Assembly (NCBI GenBank): GCA_013911345.1
Contig: JACETJ010000037.1
Location: forward strand, 1-9,930
DNA from: Congregibacter sp.
Lineage (GTDB): Bacteria; Pseudomonadota; Gammaproteobacteria; Pseudomonadales; Halieaceae
DNA: 9,930 nucleotides
Reading direction: 5' to 3'
In this document: one piece after another, positions 2,693 to 9,930 of the stretch
Layout: each line of letters opens with the position of its first letter
Position numbering within the stretch: the stretch's first letter is position 1
The notes under the pieces: model-generated
What the model saw: only the letters and a program-made list of their open reading frames with translations
The model's database searches: none
Told to the model about the DNA's origin: nothing
Translations under genes and position numbers: made by a program

Positions 2693-4345
2693 ATGCAGTA
2701 CTCCACCCTCACCGAGCAGGCACGCCACTGGGCGGCGTCGCAACCCGAGCAGGTATGGATGCGTGATCTGGCTGAATCAGGCGCAACAGAGTACACCTGG
2801 GGTGCGGCGGTTGCCGAGATCGACCGCGTTGCTGCCTGGCTCGAAGCGGCGTTTGGGCACGGTGAACGAATGGCACTGCTCTCCCGCAATCGGGCCCACT
2901 GGATCATGGCCGACATGGGGATCATTCACTCGGGTAACGTCACGGTGCCGCTTTTTACCACTCACGCTCAGGCAACCGCCGAATACATCCTAGGCTTTAC
3001 TGATACCAAAGTGCTGTTTCTCGGCGAGACCGAAAACTGGCACAGCGTAAAAGAGGTCCTCCCGGAAGGCTGCTTGTTGATTACGCTACCGGGGGTCGAT
3101 TGCGACCTGCCTCATACAAAATGGGAGGATCTCGTCGCAGCCGCTTCTACGGAGGCGCCCTCCTATAAACCCGGCCCCGATGACGTCGTCTCTCTGGTAT
3201 TCACTTCGGGCACAACCGGCTTGCCAAAGGGGGTCATACAGACCCACGCCACCAATCTGATTCCCATGCGTCGGTGCCAATACCTTTTCACGCAACGTGA
3301 ACAACCGAGGTGGTTCAGCTACTTGCCGCTCTCCCATATCGCTGAGCGCCAGATTGTTGAATTCTCATCGATCAATACGGGGGGCGAGATCTGGTTTAAT
3401 GAATCGCTCGAGACGCTGGCGCGGGATCTTCCCCAATGCCGACCCAACATCTTTTTCGGCCCACCCCGGGTCTGGGAGCAACTACGGCAATCGATTACTG
3501 CCAAGTTTGGGGGCGCAGAGGCGCTGGCAGCAGCGCTCGCAGCCGATCAAGCTGGAGTACAGGGTCTGGTAAGGGGTGCGCTCGGGATGGATGACGTTGA
3601 ATATTGTCTGACCGCGGCCGCCCCCACTCCACCCTCTCTGATTGAGTGGTGGGACAAAGTCGGTGTGAAGCTGTGTGAGGGGTTCGGGCAGACCGAAGCA
3701 ATGGGGCTCATTATCACCGACCCAAAGGACCGCCGCATCGGCTCCATCGGCAGACCCGCTGGCGAAGTCGAAGTCAAAATTGGGGACAACGACGAACTAT
3801 TAATCAAGGCAGAGGGCTGCACGCCCGGATACTACAACCGCCCCGAGAAGACCGCAGAGCTCTGGCAGAATGGTTGGCTGCACACGGGCGACAAAGTGCG
3901 CATTGATGACGATGGCTTTATTTTCATTACCGGGAGAGTCAAAGACTACTTCAAGACCATTCAAGGCAAGTTCGTGGCCCCACCGCCCATCGAGGGTCTC
4001 TTTGCTGACAACCCTCATTCTGAACAACAGTGCCTGCTAGGCCGGGGTTACTCAAAGACGGTAATGGTCACGGTGCTTAACGAGCCCGCTCGCGCCCTGC
4101 CCAAAGAGGCTGTAGAGGCCGCTGCTTTAGCGACGGTAGACCATATCAACGGCGAAATTGAAAAACATGCGCGCATTGGCGCGGTGATTTTCAGCAGCGA
4201 ACCCTGGACCATCGAAAACGAGATTCTGACCCCGACCATGAAGATTCGGCGCGAGCAGATTGAAAATAAATTTGGCGAGTGCGCAGAGCGTATTGCCCGG
4301 GAAGGCGCAGAGACGGGAGCGATTCAGCTTCACTGGTTTGACTAA
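2693..4345 (+). CDS. AMP-forming long-chain acyl-CoA synthetase
   Basis: A 550-residue adenylate-forming enzyme that activates a fatty or related carboxylic acid with ATP and CoA. Visible motifs: phosphate-binding loop TSGTTGLPKG (171-180), YLPLSHIAER (210-219), FFGPPRVWEQ (254-263), adenylate-contacting GFGQTEAMGL (330-339), GWLHTGD (394-400), and the hinge and C-terminal region FITGRVKDYFKTIQGKFVAPPPIE (411-434 approximately). The probable catalytic lysine of the C-terminal domain is K517 in TPTMKIRR. The overall pattern is that of long-chain (FadD15/FAA-like) synthetases rather than acetyl-CoA synthetases, though it is somewhat shorter than many. The acyl chain preference cannot be read from sequence. 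The ATG at 2693 has AAAGGA 9 nt upstream. It stands alone, with divergent and convergent neighbours, so there is no operon context to narrow the substrate. Confidence 0.9.
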   Translation: MQYSTLTEQARHWAASQPEQVWMRDLAESGATEYTWGAAVAEIDRVAAWLEAAFGHGERMALLSRNRAHWIMADMGIIHSGNVTVPLFTTHAQATAEYILGFTDTKVLFLGETENWHSVKEVLPEGCLLITLPGVDCDLPHTKWEDLVAAASTEAPSYKPGPDDVVSLVFTSGTTGLPKGVIQTHATNLIPMRRCQYLFTQREQPRWFSYLPLSHIAERQIVEFSSINTGGEIWFNESLETLARDLPQCRPNIFFGPPRVWEQLRQSITAKFGGAEALAAALAADQAGVQGLVRGALGMDDVEYCLTAAAPTPPSLIEWWDKVGVKLCEGFGQTEAMGLIITDPKDRRIGSIGRPAGEVEVKIGDNDELLIKAEGCTPGYYNRPEKTAELWQNGWLHTGDKVRIDDDGFIFITGRVKDYFKTIQGKFVAPPPIEGLFADNPHSEQQCLLGRGYSKTVMVTVLNEPARALPKEAVEAAALATVDHINGEIEKHARIGAVIFSSEPWTIENEILTPTMKIRREQIENKFGECAERIAREGAETGAIQLHWFD

Positions 4346-4394: not shown

Positions 4395-4751
4395 TCAGGG
4401 CATTTCCGACTCGTATTCCTCGACAACGTAGCTGCGAATGAGCTCGCGGTCGAAAAGGCGCGCTTCGTCGGCGATGATTTCCGCTTGCGCGGCCTCTGAC
4501 GCAATCAACGCCATCGCGGCGTCCATGCGGTCCTGATCCGGGAACCAGATCTCCATTAGTACATCAAAAGGCAATCCCTCTGGAGCATGATGAGTCGAAT
4601 CGGCCACGTGAAGGTAACGCCGCTGATACTTCACCGCGTACCCGGCGAGATACTTCTCGCCGATTATCTTATGGTGCGTCTCGTAATGCTCAATAAATGC
4701 TTCCCGCGACATGCCGGGTTTTTTTGTCAGCAACGTAACCAGCTTGATCAT
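4395..4751 (-). CDS. EthD domain-containing protein
   Basis: A 118-residue protein matching the EthD family, a small ferredoxin-like (dimeric alpha-beta barrel) fold. It begins MIKLVTLLTKKPGMSREAF, followed by the typical HYETHHKII and a central YQRRYLH, and ends with an acidic tail. EthD proteins are found beside oxidative degradation genes (the namesake with the EthABC ether-degrading P450), but their biochemical role is poorly defined. No signal peptide is visible, so it is probably cytoplasmic, unlike its upstream neighbours. It starts 37 bp after the TPR lipoprotein stop on the same strand and is probably the last gene of the mauG-like/TPR/EthD unit. The ribosome binding site is weak, which fits translation as a downstream operon gene. 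Family membership is fairly sure; a link to methanethiol metabolism is a guess from position. Confidence 0.78.
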   Translation of the reverse strand: MIKLVTLLTKKPGMSREAFIEHYETHHKIIGEKYLAGYAVKYQRRYLHVADSTHHAPEGLPFDVLMEIWFPDQDRMDAAMALIASEAAQAEIIADEARLFDRELIRSYVVEEYESEMP

Positions 4752-4788
4752 GCGCTTTTCACCGCCTCAGCCAACGAGCGCTAAATAG

Positions 4789-6483
4789 CTAGAGAATTGA
4801 AGAACTCAACGTCACGTCTGCGAACTGCCAGAGCGTCTCAAATCGGTCGAGTGCTTTCTTCGCTCCCGCCTCGTCACCCAGAGCGCTCATGGCCTCGGCC
4901 AGGCCAAACGTAGACCACCCGTTCATCGGATACTGCTTCAGATCTGCCTCGAACACCGCCTGCGCCTCTTCAGCCCGACCATCGGCCAGCAGCGCGGCGC
5001 CTAACGACTGCCGCGTCGGGTAGTACCAGAATGGCGGCTCGGTGTAGGGCAGCGCGTCCTGCAGCGCAACGGCTTCCTCAAACGCCTGCACCGCGCTAGC
5101 CGCATCATCTGAGCGATACGCCATCTCGCCCCTCAGTAATGCCTTGGCAATCTCGAGAAGATCTCTGGCCGGGTACACATTGCCCATGAAGATCTCGTCG
5201 ACCTCGGGCTCGAGCCGTTCAATCGCTGCCAATTCGACCAGCGCGGCCTCTGCGTCACCCAGCGCTGCGTGGGCGACACCGCGCCCGTAGTGCCATATCG
5301 CGCGGGCAAACGCGAAGGGCTCGTAAGGCTCGGGCTCAGCCAGAATCTCCTCCCACTTCGCGAACCGCACCAGAGAGAGCATCGGCACTGTGCGAAAGAA
5401 CTGAATAGTCGGGAACTGCTCCACCTGCTCGACCCGCACGTTAGCCACTACCCGCCGGGCGCTGTCCAGCGACAGTGCGCTTTGGCCCTGCATGGTCGCC
5501 GAGGCCCACAGGAAGTGGATGTTATGCGGGTAATACAGCGCGGGATAAAAGCCCTGCGCGTTGCACTGGGCGATGTAGGCTTCGTCAACTTCTGCGGCGC
5601 GAAGATTAGCCAGCGCGGAATCCTGGTACCGGCCCACCCTGAAGTAAATGTGGCTGGGCATGTGCACGAGATGACCTGACCCGGGCACCAGATTAGCCAG
5701 ACGATCCGCAGCAAGCTCCGCCTTTGCCGCATTCGAAGAGGCTTCCAATGCATGGATATACAGGTGAAGCGCGAGGGGATGATCGGGGTCTGCCTCCATG
5801 ACGGCCTCAAGGCTCGCAATCACCGCTTGCGTGTCAGGCTTTGCTTCCCCGTTCGGACCCCAATAATCCCAGGGCATAGTATTCATCAACGCCTCTGCGT
5901 ACACCGATGCCACCGTCGTGTCATTGGGGTAACGCGCTGCCATCTCAGCCAGCGCATCGGCCCATGCCCGATCGAGCGGGTCGCGGGGGGTGTCCGCCTG
6001 ACCGTCATAACGCTGATCCAGCGCTCTGATCCAGTCCTGCTCCTTAGGCGTCACTCCATCGATCAACGTCAACGCTTGATCTATTGCGGCGCGCGCGCCG
6101 ACTCGCTCATCAGCCGACATAATGGCCTTGCCGTTACTGGTCACGTTGATATTCGGCCCTGTCGCCAGTGCTTCGCCCCAGAAGCACATGGCGCATCCGG
6201 GATCTAACGTTTGCGCGGCGCGAAAACTGCGAATGGATTCCGCATGGTTAAAGCCAAACGCCAGCACCATGCCCTGATCAAAGTAGCGTTGGGCATTAGG
6301 GTCAGTGGTGGTGATGGGCATGTGGTAATCACCCATGCCCTCGAACAGCGGCGCTCCTGCGCGCTCCGCCAAACTTTGCTGTTGGTCTGCGCCCGACAGC
6401 GAATCGACTTCGCTGCCACACCCCACCAAGGCCAAGGACCCCAAGATACCCAGCAACCCTATTCGCTTACACGCCTTAAACAT
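4789..6483 (-). CDS. TPR-repeat lipoprotein of the methanethiol oxidase locus
   Basis: A 564-residue exported lipoprotein. The start at 6483 gives a classic lipoprotein signal: a basic N-terminus, a hydrophobic stretch, and lipobox LVGC with lipidated C22. An in-frame ATG at 6519 is possible but would add a non-typical leader. TPR-like helix pairs are seen at about 67-98, 396-426, 486-519 and 520-551. Between them are dense polar motifs that look functional: C97-x-x-C100 followed by FWGEALATGPNIN, HLYIH (240-244), HLVHMPSHIY (271-280) and YYPHNIHFLW (318-326 approximately). The CXXC is followed by Phe, not His, so it is not a c-type haem site. I recall similar uncharacterised TPR proteins in other bacteria but no assigned activity. 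It starts 44 bp after the MauG-like gene and is probably co-transcribed with it. A scaffold or metal-handling partner for the periplasmic enzymes is a reasonable inference, not shown. Confidence 0.82.
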   Translation of the reverse strand: MFKACKRIGLLGILGSLALVGCGSEVDSLSGADQQQSLAERAGAPLFEGMGDYHMPITTTDPNAQRYFDQGMVLAFGFNHAESIRSFRAAQTLDPGCAMCFWGEALATGPNINVTSNGKAIMSADERVGARAAIDQALTLIDGVTPKEQDWIRALDQRYDGQADTPRDPLDRAWADALAEMAARYPNDTTVASVYAEALMNTMPWDYWGPNGEAKPDTQAVIASLEAVMEADPDHPLALHLYIHALEASSNAAKAELAADRLANLVPGSGHLVHMPSHIYFRVGRYQDSALANLRAAEVDEAYIAQCNAQGFYPALYYPHNIHFLWASATMQGQSALSLDSARRVVANVRVEQVEQFPTIQFFRTVPMLSLVRFAKWEEILAEPEPYEPFAFARAIWHYGRGVAHAALGDAEAALVELAAIERLEPEVDEIFMGNVYPARDLLEIAKALLRGEMAYRSDDAASAVQAFEEAVALQDALPYTEPPFWYYPTRQSLGAALLADGRAEEAQAVFEADLKQYPMNGWSTFGLAEAMSALGDEAGAKKALDRFETLWQFADVTLSSSIL

Positions 6484-6527
6484 GAGCCAGCCCCCGAAGA
6501 AAACCCTCACCCTACACATGCCTGTGG

Positions 6528-7862
6528 TTACTGACCACCCGCCGTCCGCTCACCGATCGTCACACTTCGGGCATCTGACACCAGCGTATCAACGTGGCTG
6601 GAGGTGAGCGTATTTAGAAACGCCACCAACGCGTCTTGATCGGACTGCGTTAACTGAACGGATTGCGTTCGGGGATCCTGGGCCGGATCTCCCCCACCAC
6701 CCTCAGCATAGAAAGCGACCACCGCCTCGAGTGTGGCAAGCGACCCATCATGCATGTAGGGGCCGGTGAGCGCGACGTTGCGCAGGCTGGGGGTGCGATA
6801 CCGCCATCGATCAGCTTCACGGCCCGTGACTTCATAGCGCCCGTCGTCAGTGAACGTTTCGGTTTCAGCGTCGACCGTGGGCACCACAAAAATCCCGGGA
6901 GCCAGCTGAACTGAGGGGGGCCGGAGTGCCCGGCCCGCGCGAAGATATCCGGTACCCGTGTTGTGAAACTGGCCATCTGTAAACAGCGCCGACGAATCGT
7001 TGATGCGATGACACGTGGCACAGCCTTTTTCCTGAAAGACGGCGAAGCCCCGAGCCGCCAGTGCCGGATAACCCTCAGCACCCGATTCTTTCTTAATGGG
7101 TAGTTCCTCGCCCCCGAAGTACCACCGATCAAACGGTGAGTCGCCAGACAGCAACGCGCGCTGATAGGCGGCCAGGGCCCGCCCCAGGGTGCTCTGGGTG
7201 AGACCCTCCTCGAAGATCTCCGCAAACCGCTGCCTATACAAATCGTTTGAGACCAGTTTTGCCAGCACCGCTTCACGAGAACCGTTCGCCATCTCATTAT
7301 CAGCAAGCAGTGGCGACCAGATCTGCGCCTCCAGTGACTGCTCCCGCCCGTCCAGGAAAAGGTCTTCCGTATACGCCACGTTGTAGAGCGACGGCACATT
7401 GCGCCGCACGCCTTTACCAAGATGACCAACCGGCGTGGCCAACTCGTTTTGGGTAAAGCCCTGCTCGGGGATGTGGCACATGGCACAAGACAGCGTCTCG
7501 TTTTTTGACAGTCGCCGGTCGAAAAATAGCTGGCGCCCTAAATCGATTTCCGCGGGAGCTAACTGACGTGTTACTGCGGGCAGGCCAAGCGGTGCATTCA
7601 CGCTCAATTCATATAGCGGCTGCCGTTCGCCGAGTGCTTGTATAACGACCTTTGAGTCTGTGACATACGAAACCGACTCATACCCCACCCGGGAGTCAGC
7701 TAAACCCACTTTGTGGGTACCATCAGTAACAGGAGCACCAGCATCCGCGAGCACCCCGATCAGCGGCAGGCACAGCAATGAGACGCCGCCCAAACACAGC
7801 ACCACGCCCCGTTTCACCGGAGTTAGAAAACGATTCGCAGGCTTGGCTGAAGGTGATAGCAT
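6528..7862 (-). CDS. MauG-like di-haem cytochrome c peroxidase family protein, secreted
   Basis: About 444 residues with a signal peptide (basic KPANRFLTPVKRG, then a hydrophobic stretch to about residue 38, ending near LADAGAP), so it is probably periplasmic. It carries two c-type haem sites, CAMCH (126-130) and CATCH (281-285). By comparison with bacterial cytochrome c peroxidases, H147 (TPVGHLGKG), Q180 and E190 sit where the distal peroxidase residues belong. RTPSLRNVALTGPYMHDG (356-373) is the usual family signature. Y385, in AFYAEGG, lies about where peroxidases have an axial Met and MauG an axial Tyr, which favours a MauG-like type. Likely roles are oxidative modification of a partner protein or H2O2 removal. 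The ATG at 7862 is chosen although no good ribosome binding site precedes it; the frame is open to a TTG at 7895. It is divergent from mtoX and the first gene of the leftward unit. Confidence 0.88.
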   Translation of the reverse strand: MLSPSAKPANRFLTPVKRGVVLCLGGVSLLCLPLIGVLADAGAPVTDGTHKVGLADSRVGYESVSYVTDSKVVIQALGERQPLYELSVNAPLGLPAVTRQLAPAEIDLGRQLFFDRRLSKNETLSCAMCHIPEQGFTQNELATPVGHLGKGVRRNVPSLYNVAYTEDLFLDGREQSLEAQIWSPLLADNEMANGSREAVLAKLVSNDLYRQRFAEIFEEGLTQSTLGRALAAYQRALLSGDSPFDRWYFGGEELPIKKESGAEGYPALAARGFAVFQEKGCATCHRINDSSALFTDGQFHNTGTGYLRAGRALRPPSVQLAPGIFVVPTVDAETETFTDDGRYEVTGREADRWRYRTPSLRNVALTGPYMHDGSLATLEAVVAFYAEGGGGDPAQDPRTQSVQLTQSDQDALVAFLNTLTSSHVDTLVSDARSVTIGERTAGGQ

Positions 7863-7897
7863 CAGGCTAATTGTGGCAGAAAAATTTAGGGACAATC
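7863..7897. promoter_or_regulatory. 35-bp divergent control region between mtoX and the MauG-like gene
   Basis: Only 35 bp separate the two chosen start codons, so each promoter must extend into the opposite coding sequence. A weak rightward candidate is TTGGCT (7843-7848) with GCTAAT (7866-7871), spacer 17 nt, each matching four of six consensus bases. The 8-bp palindrome ATCATGAT (7896-7903) covers the mtoX start codon. I do not recognise a known operator. Confidence 0.4.
7888..7892 (+). promoter_or_regulatory. Ribosome binding site deciding the mtoX start
   Basis: AGGGA lies 5 nt before the ATG at 7898. This favours that start over the TTG at 7871 and gives a clean signal peptide. Confidence 0.65.
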
Positions 7898-9256
7898 ATG
7901 ATAATCAAAGGATTTTTTTCAGCGCTAATTGCGCTGGCCGTGCTGGTACAACCAACGTCGGCAGACGAAACCTGCATGTCACCGTATATGGCCAAGATCG
8001 TTGGCCAGGAAGACTATGTTTATATCTGGACGCTGGGCCTTGAGGGCGTTGGCGACGGAGAGGACAAACTCGTCACGGTAGACGTTAACCCTGACTCTGA
8101 AACCTATGCACAGGTCATTCACTCAATCTCGATGGGTGGCCGCCACGAAGCGCATCACTCAGGGCTAACCGATGATCGCCGCTACTTGTGGGCGTCCGGT
8201 TTGGACACCAGTAAAATCTTCATCTTCGATGTCCATACAGATCCTGCGGCGCCCACGCTGCACCGCACCATTGACGATTTCGTCGAGAAAACCGGCGGCG
8301 TGGTCGGGCCCCATACCAACTATGCGCTGCCCGGACGCATGCTGATCACTGGGTTGTCCAATAACCGCGACCACGGCGGCCGCACCGGCATGGCGGAGTA
8401 CACCAACGGCGGTGATTTCATCACCAGCGTCTGGATGCCCACCGATGACAACCTGCAGGGTGCCGAGAAGTCTGGAAACTTCGCCGACGGCTATGGATAC
8501 GACGCGCGCGCCTTGCCACGACGTAATGTGCTGGTGACGTCCTCCTTCACCGGCTGGAACAACTACATGATGAACCTTGGCAAGATGATGGGCGATGGCG
8601 AGGCGATGAAGCGTTTCGGCAATACGGTCGTTATTTGGGACCTGCATACCCGAAAGCCCAAAAAGGTATTGGATGTGCCTGGTGCGCCGCTCGAAATCCG
8701 CTGCGCCTGGGGCTCTCGCTCAAACTACTGCTTCACCACCACCGCCCTCACCTCCAAGGTCTGGTTAATCTACGAAGACGAAGCCGGCGAGTGGCAGGCG
8801 AAAGCGGTGGCGGATATTGGTGACGCCAGCAAGATACCTCTGCCCGTGGATATCTCGATCTCGGCCGACGACAACCACCTGTGGATCAACACCTGGAACG
8901 ATGGACTGACTCGCTTGTATGACATTTCAGATCCTTTCGCACCGACGCAGATCATGGAAGAGCAGATCGGCGAGCAGGTGAACATGGTGTCGCAGAGCTG
9001 GGACGGTAAGCGGCTTTACTACACCTCGTCGCTACTAGCGAACTGGGATAAAACAACCGCATCAGAAGGCAATGACCTGCAGTACTTCAAACTCTACAAG
9101 TGGGACGGTAAGTCGATGACGCCAGAATTTAATCTCGACTTTGTCGAGCTTGGCCTCGGAGCCCCACACCAGATGCGATTCGGCGCTCACGCGCTGTATG
9201 GCGGTATGACCGCGCAATCGCCGTCGGGCCTGATCACGACACCACCCGCGCACTGA
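7898..9256 (+). CDS. mtoX: Methanethiol oxidase, SBP56/SELENBP1 family, secreted
   Basis: A 452-residue selenium-binding-protein-56 family member. Characterised bacterial relatives are copper-dependent methanethiol oxidases that convert methanethiol, O2 and water to formaldehyde, H2S and H2O2. A signal peptide is clear (MIIKGFFSALIALAVL, cleavage probably after TSA at residue 22), so it acts in the periplasm. Family signatures aligned with human SELENBP1 are VTVDVNPDSETYAQVIH (59-75), HHSG (86-89), GPHTNYAL (137-144), APLEIR (263-268), LYDISDP (340-346) and GAPHQMRFGAHAL (421-433). H86, H87, H139 and H424 are conserved with the human protein and are likely metal ligands. The CXXC at the N-terminus of human SELENBP1 is absent; only C26 remains there. 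The SCO gene begins 7 bp after its stop and a MauG-like gene is divergent, the known neighbours of bacterial mtoX. Substrate activity is inferred from family and context. Confidence 0.87.
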   Translation: MIIKGFFSALIALAVLVQPTSADETCMSPYMAKIVGQEDYVYIWTLGLEGVGDGEDKLVTVDVNPDSETYAQVIHSISMGGRHEAHHSGLTDDRRYLWASGLDTSKIFIFDVHTDPAAPTLHRTIDDFVEKTGGVVGPHTNYALPGRMLITGLSNNRDHGGRTGMAEYTNGGDFITSVWMPTDDNLQGAEKSGNFADGYGYDARALPRRNVLVTSSFTGWNNYMMNLGKMMGDGEAMKRFGNTVVIWDLHTRKPKKVLDVPGAPLEIRCAWGSRSNYCFTTTALTSKVWLIYEDEAGEWQAKAVADIGDASKIPLPVDISISADDNHLWINTWNDGLTRLYDISDPFAPTQIMEEQIGEQVNMVSQSWDGKRLYYTSSLLANWDKTTASEGNDLQYFKLYKWDGKSMTPEFNLDFVELGLGAPHQMRFGAHALYGGMTAQSPSGLITTPPAH

Positions 9257-9263
9257 TACCAGC

Positions 9264-9930
9264 GTGCGCGGTACCCTCCTCCTGCTGATCTGGGCATGGA
9301 GTGCAGCCGCACTCTGTGCCCCTCACGAGCACAAACCCCCTGTGGTACTGGCCCCGGGCTACGAGCCCTTGTCCTTTACGCCACCGGAGCCCGGCAGTTA
9401 CGCCCTTCCGTCCATGGGTAGCGCGGCAGATGGCGCGGTGATCGACAGTGACGGCAATTCAGCACAGCTCCATGATTTCCTCGGCGGCAAGCCCACTGTC
9501 CTGAGCTTTATTTTCACCACCTGCGATGACGTGAACGGCTGCCCTCTGGCAACCTACGTGATGCGGAGCGTCCAAGATGCTCTGCAAGCAGACCCCGCGA
9601 CTGCGGATAAAGCGCGCCTGGTGAGCTTCAGTTTTGACCCAGTATTCGATACGCCTGACGTGATCGACGCGTACGGGTCGCAGTTTCGCGCGGGGGATTT
9701 TGACTGGCAGTTTCTCACCACAGAGGGCGCCACCACATTGGACCCCATCCTCAACGCCTATGGTCAGTGGGTGATCCGAGACTATGACGAGAATGGCGAA
9801 TACATGGGCACGATGTCGCATATCCTGCGTGTGTTTCTTATCGATGAATCCCGCCAGATTCGCAACATCTACAGCACCTCGTTTCTGCATGCTGACACCG
9901 TTGCCAACGACGTGCGCTCGCTGTTAATGG
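9264..9930 (+). CDS. SCO1/SenC family copper protein, secreted (3' end outside window)
   Basis: The frame is open from GTG 9264 to the window end: 222 residues, with no stop reached. A short signal peptide (RGTLLLLIWAWSAAALCA) predicts export. A thioredoxin-like SCO fold follows: VIDSDGNSAQLHDFLGGKP, then PTVLSFIFTTC, and later LVSFSFDPVFDTPDVIDAY. Likely copper ligands are C87, C93 and H186 (SHILRVFLID). Canonical SCO proteins have CX3C; here the cysteines are C-DDVNG-C, a CX5C spacing followed by PLA. Family members deliver copper to cytochrome oxidase or act as thiol-disulfide proteins. The 7-bp gap after mtoX suggests translational coupling and a role in loading copper into the oxidase. 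No Shine-Dalgarno is obvious and no ATG fits, so GTG is the best start. Confidence 0.87.
   Translation, partial: MRGTLLLLIWAWSAAALCAPHEHKPPVVLAPGYEPLSFTPPEPGSYALPSMGSAADGAVIDSDGNSAQLHDFLGGKPTVLSFIFTTCDDVNGCPLATYVMRSVQDALQADPATADKARLVSFSFDPVFDTPDVIDAYGSQFRAGDFDWQFLTTEGATTLDPILNAYGQWVIRDYDENGEYMGTMSHILRVFLIDESRQIRNIYSTSFLHADTVANDVRSLLM

What the first reader, a model, noticed from the sequence alone, without database searches (positions are those of the whole stretch)
4395..9930. Divergent five-gene periplasmic module around a methanethiol oxidase
The sequence shows mtoX and a SCO protein going right, and a MauG-like di-haem protein, a TPR lipoprotein and an EthD protein going left, with short gaps (7, 44 and 37 bp) inside each arm. 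Four of the five proteins carry export signals. Linkage of mtoX with SCO1/senC and mauG is known from bacterial methanethiol oxidase work. Inclusion of the TPR lipoprotein and the EthD protein as functional members is my inference and would enlarge the known system.
Basis: partly seen in the sequence, partly recalled or inferred. Interest (0 to 1): 0.7.

Follow-up and report, generated by a model that had tools for sequence, protein, structure and literature searches.

The report
Known methanethiol oxidase cluster with bystanders
This is a marine bacterium's version of the already described gene set for breaking down the smelly gas methanethiol; the two extra genes that looked like new parts of it appear to be neighbours inherited in one small bacterial group rather than parts of the system.

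Summary
The five genes, strands and gaps (7, 44, 37 bp) are as described. mtoX passes the NCBIfam methanethiol oxidase cut-off; mtoX, SCO and a MauG-like di-haem gene are the published core. Of 80 related mtoX loci, 50 have enough flank: SCO in 50, MauG in 49, TPR in 3, EthD in 4. TPR and EthD occur beside mtoX only in one Luminiphilus-like subclade; outside it 0 of 46 each. There their homologues were on other contigs in the groups I read, or not found. An acyl-CoA-ligase-like gene beyond EthD is linked in the same loci, so adjacency there can be shared ancestry. The window's EthD and ligase resemble another lineage than its mtoX does, which suggests recombination. The core is supported; the five-gene module is not. 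Side results: the MauG-like protein has Tyr where aligned peroxidases have Met; the TPR lipoprotein belongs to a large family with nine nearly invariant histidines, perhaps a metal or cofactor site. A better candidate extension, itself lineage-limited, lies right of the window in relatives: aldehyde dehydrogenase and O-acetylhomoserine sulfhydrylase genes.

The parts
7898..9256 (+). mtoX, methanethiol oxidase (SBP56 family), signal peptide by eye
   Evidence: NF052453 732.9 bits (cut-off 650); 66% identical to R. pomeroyi MtoX; putative Cu ligands H86 H87 H139 H424 and W220 W383 present
9264..9929 (+). SCO1/SenC-type copper chaperone gene, 3' end outside the window
   Evidence: PF02630 3e-17; 50 of 50 flank-complete mtoX loci
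6528..7862 (-). MauG/MbnH-like di-haem protein, divergent from mtoX
   Evidence: PF03150 1.5e-50; two CXXCH (126, 281), Tyr Y385 at the presumed axial-ligand position
7818..7897 (.). divergent control region; TGnTAGCAT (extended -10 like, overlapping the mauG ATG) in 14 of 14 close relatives printed, AATTGTGGCAGAAA in 13 of 14 (not L013)
   Evidence: read by eye, many of the 14 near-identical; the consensus scan did not list it, so it is a suggestion only
4789..6483 (-). TPR lipoprotein of a large family with nearly invariant histidines; neighbour, not shown to belong
4395..4751 (-). EthD-domain protein; neighbour, not shown to belong
   Evidence: PF07110 1.3e-12
2693..4345 (+). AMP-binding acyl-CoA-ligase-like gene, convergent with EthD; used as a control for inherited synteny
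   Evidence: PF00501; in 4 of the 4 flank-complete loci that have EthD, 0 of 46 outside

Best explanation
The functional unit is the published one: periplasmic MtoX oxidises methanethiol (to formaldehyde, a reduced sulfur product and H2O2), SCO delivers copper to it, and the MauG-like di-haem protein matures it, probably by oxidising conserved tryptophans. Here mauG is read away from mtoX-SCO from a shared short control region, the layout of 52 of 80 relatives. The TPR lipoprotein and EthD genes stand beside mauG by inheritance in one Luminiphilus-like subclade; they may be co-transcribed with mauG but most likely do other work. Shown: gene content, homology, residues, distribution. Inferred: copper delivery, maturation, and that TPR and EthD are bystanders.
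For: Family assignments. Putative Cu-ligand His and cofactor Trp named for R. pomeroyi in PMC10936201 (passage) are all present and 0.99-1.00 conserved in 74 MtoX rows. Tyr at the presumed axial site in 67 of 69 rows with a letter there, 2 Phe, where three aligned peroxidases have Met and the di-haem enzyme 6e1c (MbnH, as I recall) has Tyr; PMC7567364 states that Tyr marks MauG (passage). Linkage counts. One subclade. In the HTCC2080 group the TPR homologue sits beside DoxX, EgtB- and EgtD-like genes (5 of 5 loci) and EthD beside a peptidase M3 gene (6 of 6), on other contigs than mtoX. Mosaic: window EthD is 93% identical to L007 but 69% to L001, while MtoX is 93% and 98%.
Against: Within the subclade TPR is kept in 8 of 9 loci long enough to show it (not L013) and EthD in 7 of 7, on mauG's strand with short gaps in the window (37, 44 bp), which suggests co-transcription. 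A lineage-specific accessory gene would show just this pattern. In the mosaic TPR goes with the mtoX side, not with EthD. The 80 loci are the most similar of 388, so more distant mtoX were hardly sampled (three plasmid loci fetched, two with annotation). Absence from MAGs can be incompleteness.
Confidence: 0.82

Rival explanations
1. The TPR lipoprotein is a lineage-specific accessory of MtoX, for example a membrane-anchored metal or partner-binding scaffold that helps load copper or dock MauG.
For: Directly behind mauG, 44 bp gap; kept in 8 of 9 assessable subclade loci; stays with the mtoX side in the mosaic; nearly invariant His/Met set H235 H240 H244 H271 H274 M275 H278 H320 of the kind that could bind metal.
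Against: 0 of 46 loci outside the subclade; L013 inside it has core and EthD but no TPR homologue was found in its genome; in L011 the TPR gene is split between two frames, as is its ligase gene, so perhaps a sequencing error; the same residues are kept in homologues beside unrelated genes, so they serve a general family function.
Confidence: 0.1
2. EthD is a functional member, for instance a cytoplasmic enzyme handling a product of methanethiol oxidation.
For: Present in all 7 subclade loci with enough flank (one cut by the contig end), and 2 bp behind mauG in L013.
Against: 0 of 46 outside; the ligase gene beyond it is equally linked (4 of 4); its similarities follow the ligase side, not mtoX; homologues in the HTCC2080 group are in a different conserved neighbourhood.
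Confidence: 0.04
3. The real local extension is on the other side: ALDH, O-acetylhomoserine sulfhydrylase (MetY-like) and an alpha/beta hydrolase behind SCO capture or remove the products. (This can be true together with the best explanation.)
For: ALDH same strand downstream in 14 and MetY-like in 11 of 57 loci with 4.5 kb or more to the right, all among the 16 such loci of the 24-row Luminiphilus-HTCC2080 clade; MetY-like passes its equivalog cut-off, 769.3 against 636. R. pomeroyi has an S-(hydroxymethyl)glutathione dehydrogenase behind its mauG.
Against: 0 of the 41 other loci, so it too is lineage-limited; outside the window; ALDH scores best with succinate-semialdehyde dehydrogenase models and passes none of the 25 cut-offs listed of 42; substrate unknown.
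Confidence: 0.3

Closest known systems
mtoX-SCO1/senC-mauG cluster (Hyphomicrobium sp. VS, Ruegeria pomeroyi DSS-3; PMC5739008)
   Same: Same three protein families, 66% identical MtoX and 48% identical di-haem protein to R. pomeroyi
   Different: mauG is divergent from mtoX instead of downstream of SCO; mauG rather than an IclR gene lies upstream; TPR and EthD neighbours
MauG / MbnH di-haem enzymes
   Same: Two CXXCH and a Tyr at the presumed axial position; best NCBIfam model is the MbnH family TIGR04039
   Different: 215.5 bits is under the MbnH cut-off 362.85, and 178.9 under the MauG cut-off 443.85; MbnP was not searched for
TPR lipoproteins such as LbcA of Pseudomonas
   Same: Predicted helical repeat lipoprotein; LbcA is among the Foldseek matches
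   Different: Only general TPR likeness (TM about 0.2-0.3); no sequence match in the PDB at E<=0.001; own invariant His set

Membership tests
MtoX methanethiol oxidase | NCBIfam equivalog cut-off | tested here: met
   732.9 against 650 bits
MtoX methanethiol oxidase | four putative Cu-ligand His and two cofactor Trp | tested here: met
   H86 H87 H139 H424, W220 W383
MtoX methanethiol oxidase | methanethiol oxidation, Cu content, cofactor | not testable with these tools
   needs protein
mtoX-SCO-mauG cluster | SCO and MauG genes adjacent | tested here: met
mtoX-SCO-mauG cluster extended by TPR and EthD | TPR and EthD linked to mtoX beyond one lineage | tested here: not met
   0 of 46 and 0 of 46 outside the subclade
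MauG (TTQ biosynthesis) | two haem c motifs | tested here: met
   both CXXCH in 71 of 71 rows
MauG (TTQ biosynthesis) | axial Tyr instead of Met or His | tested here: met
   the column is identified through peroxidases and 6e1c, since no MauG alignment was printed
MauG (TTQ biosynthesis) | NCBIfam TIGR03791 cut-off | tested here: not met
   178.9 against 443.85
MbnH | NCBIfam TIGR04039 cut-off | tested here: not met
   215.5 against 362.85
MbnH | MbnP partner gene | not tested
   no search was run

The most novel reading that the evidence does not exclude
The TPR lipoprotein is the first noticed member of a large family of exported TPR metalloproteins, whose invariant His/Met-lined helices bind copper or another cofactor, and in this subclade it has been recruited to supply or dock MtoX.
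Probability: 0.06. Interest if true: 0.55.

Novelty: new member of a known kind. Interest (0 to 1): 0.2.

Why it matters
It takes two genes off the candidate list of the methanethiol oxidation system and shows how conserved adjacency in close relatives can mislead. Correct gene lists for mtoX loci of marine bacteria matter for sulfur-cycle models. The His-rich TPR family and the ALDH-MetY neighbours are cheap, testable leads.

Tried and rejected
One search failed: no whole genome is held for this window. In one search the TPR query was cut one base out of frame; its TPR column is void and one search replaces it. The tree's 'TPR 6 changes' is not used, because loci whose contig ends before the TPR position were labelled as lacking it; only the clade itself is used. 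The promoter and terminator scan found no more sites than shuffles (1 against a mean of 2.7; 3 against 4.7). A PDB sequence search with the TPR protein found nothing at E<=0.001; fold searches gave only general TPR solenoids. Model coordinates were not in the Python box, so whether the His residues meet in space was not tested. Plasmid-borne TPR homologues (100 records matched, 30 listed; four neighbourhoods read) show no annotated sulfur or copper gene; on two Skermanella plasmids mtoX and a TPR homologue coexist but lie over 150 kb apart. On one of these no mauG is listed beside mtoX-SCO, in a gene table that is known to be incomplete. Literature searches in the held library for methanethiol oxidase with tetratricopeptide, with EthD, with mauG plus aldehyde dehydrogenase, and for MtoX with O-acetylhomoserine gave 1, 1, 0 and 0 papers; the single hits (a neuroproteomics and a fungal genomics paper) look unrelated from title and abstract start in the listing. 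Supplementary Table S7 of PMC5739008, which lists neighbourhoods, was not read (the session allows no supplementary files).

Full report
Observation. The five ORFs, their strands and the gaps of 37, 44 and 7 bp are confirmed. MtoX exceeds the equivalog cut-off (732.9 against 650 bits). The window probably comes from a Luminiphilus-like bacterium: its MtoX is 97-98% identical to that of six loci titled Halieaceae or Luminiphilus.

Core. MtoX aligns over 414 columns at 66% identity with R. pomeroyi MtoX, and the residues named in PMC10936201 as putative copper ligands and cofactor tryptophans (passage) are present and 0.99-1.00 conserved in 74 rows. The di-haem protein is 48% identical over 363 columns to the one behind R. 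pomeroyi SCO. In the five PDB alignments printed, its Y385 stands where three different peroxidases (4aal with a near-identical second chain, 9qdt, 3o5c) have Met and where 6e1c, which I recall as MbnH, has Tyr. Over 71 rows the site is Tyr in 67, Phe in 2, gap in 2. PMC7567364 (passage) says that an axial Tyr is conserved in MauGs and replaced by Met or His in peroxidases. No MauG alignment was printed, so that Y385 is that ligand is inferred. It then works like a MauG/MbnH maturase, though it fails both NCBIfam cut-offs. That MtoX carries a TTQ-like cofactor is a proposal of PMC5739008 (passages), not shown here. The products are from PMC7157515 (passage); PMC10936201 argues for sulfane sulfur instead of H2S (title and abstract start).

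Neighbourhood survey. The collection scan found 388 relatives and kept the best 80. By tblastn at E<=1e-5 mauG is divergent on the left in 52, same-strand on the right in 26, and not seen in 2 (L047 with 138 bp on the left, and L076). Of 80, 50 have at least 4.5 kb left and 1.5 kb right: SCO 50, MauG 49, TPR 3, EthD 4, ligase 4. The loci with TPR or EthD fall in one 15-row clade with the window (support 99/95). Of the 50, 46 lie outside it: MauG 45, SCO 46, TPR 0, EthD 0, ligase 0. Inside the clade, TPR is in 8 of 9 fetched loci with enough flank (not L013) and EthD in 7 of 7, one cut by the contig end; the other five loci end too early. In four of those five genomes TPR and EthD pieces lie side by side on another contig (G002, G004, G006, G008); G010 has neither. 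G012 has TPR but no EthD found; G005 has a second, partial TPR-EthD pair on another contig. In L011 the TPR gene is split between two frames. In L013, the first branch of the clade, EthD starts 2 bp behind mauG and no TPR homologue was found in the genome.

Where the homologues are otherwise. I searched 36 of the 80 genomes (L001-L030 and six more): 26 have a TPR and 24 an EthD homologue at E<=1e-3. In the HTCC2080 group the TPR homologue (36-39%) sits beside DoxX, EgtB-like and EgtD-like genes in 5 of 5 loci (Pfam was run on L091, the others share the ORF clusters). The EthD homologue (52-59%) sits beside a peptidase M3 gene in 6 of 6, a GST gene in 5 and thymidine kinase in 4 (some contigs are short). 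These contigs are not the mtoX contigs. Of six isolates among the 36, four with the core have neither homologue; Seongchinamella unica has TPR only and HTCC2080 both. In all, 20 TPR and 10 EthD stretches were fetched; none shows an MtoX or SCO/MauG cluster in the ORF maps.

Inherited synteny rather than function. The ligase gene beyond EthD is in 4 of 4 flank-complete loci with EthD. The window's EthD is 90-93% identical to L007 and L009 but 69-71% to L001 and L003, whereas its MtoX is 97-98% to L001 and L003 and 92-93% to L007 and L009, and MauG 83-86% against 69-71%. The ligase is 90-91% to L007 and L009 and 84% to the 118 residues held of L003. L005 is in between (EthD 80%). The simplest reading is homologous recombination with a breakpoint between TPR and EthD, which uncouples EthD from the mtoX side; I tested it by identities only, not by trees of each gene. 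TPR goes with the mtoX side (89-90% against 83-87%), so it is the less clear of the two.

The TPR protein. It carries a lipobox and is predicted as a helical repeat protein (mean pLDDT 84.9). The family is large: 7637 of 7999 and 7960 of 8000 scored candidates matched in two capped searches. In 44 rows, the window included and the others 41-91% identical to it, H80, H240, H244, H271, H274, M275, H278 and H320 are in 44 of 44, H235 and H323 in 43. In a broader set of 26, down to 29% identity, H235, H240, H244, H271, H274, M275, H278 and H320 stay at 95% or more; H80, H323, C97 and C100 do not. In the model H240/H244 and H271/H274/M275/H278 lie on single helices at spacings of 3-4, so on one face. 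A metal or cofactor site is my inference; no coordinates were available to test it. The feature is family-wide and therefore no argument for a role with MtoX.

Right of the window. In relatives SCO is followed on the same strand by an aldehyde dehydrogenase (14 of 57 loci with at least 4.5 kb on the right), a MetY-like O-acetylhomoserine sulfhydrylase and an alpha/beta hydrolase (11 of 57 each). All lie among the 16 such loci of the 24-row Luminiphilus-HTCC2080 clade, 0 of 41 outside, so they spread wider than TPR and EthD but are lineage-limited too. A sulfhydrylase could capture sulfide or methanethiol (established chemistry of the family; PMC7157515 discusses both routes in Ruegeria, passages). 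This is the better candidate for a functional extension, still unproven.

Verdict. A known system in a lineage where mauG is divergent, with two neighbours that the evidence does not admit as members.

Noticed in passing
L001:5858-9404 and matching places in L006-L013, L015, L023 (right of the window): SCO is followed by ALDH, MetY-like O-acetylhomoserine sulfhydrylase and an alpha/beta hydrolase, a possible sulfur-capture extension of the mtoX operon.
   Followed up: partly
window 4789-6483: TPR lipoprotein family with a nearly invariant His/Met set and, in 44 of 44 aligned rows, C97/C100; no specific family model among the Pfam and NCBIfam hits and no PDB sequence match.
   Followed up: partly
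window 4395-4788: Mosaic: EthD and ligase side resemble L007/L009, mtoX side resembles L001/L003; likely recombination breakpoint between TPR and EthD.
   Followed up: partly
L091-L095: In HTCC2080-group genomes the TPR homologue neighbours EgtB/EgtD-like (ergothioneine-type) genes; in L091 a TIR-AAA domain protein lies next to it.
   Followed up: no
window 7818-7897: A conserved extended -10-like TGnTAGCAT overlaps the mauG ATG; the true mauG start may be a GTG 45 bp further in (read by eye).
   Followed up: partly
L121:9262-10374: R. pomeroyi has an S-(hydroxymethyl)glutathione dehydrogenase gene directly behind mtoX-SCO-mauG, a plausible formaldehyde step.
   Followed up: no
L055 and L068 mtoX: In-frame stops inside the mtoX stretch (codons 257 and 28 of the matched stretch), perhaps assembly errors or broken genes.
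   Followed up: no
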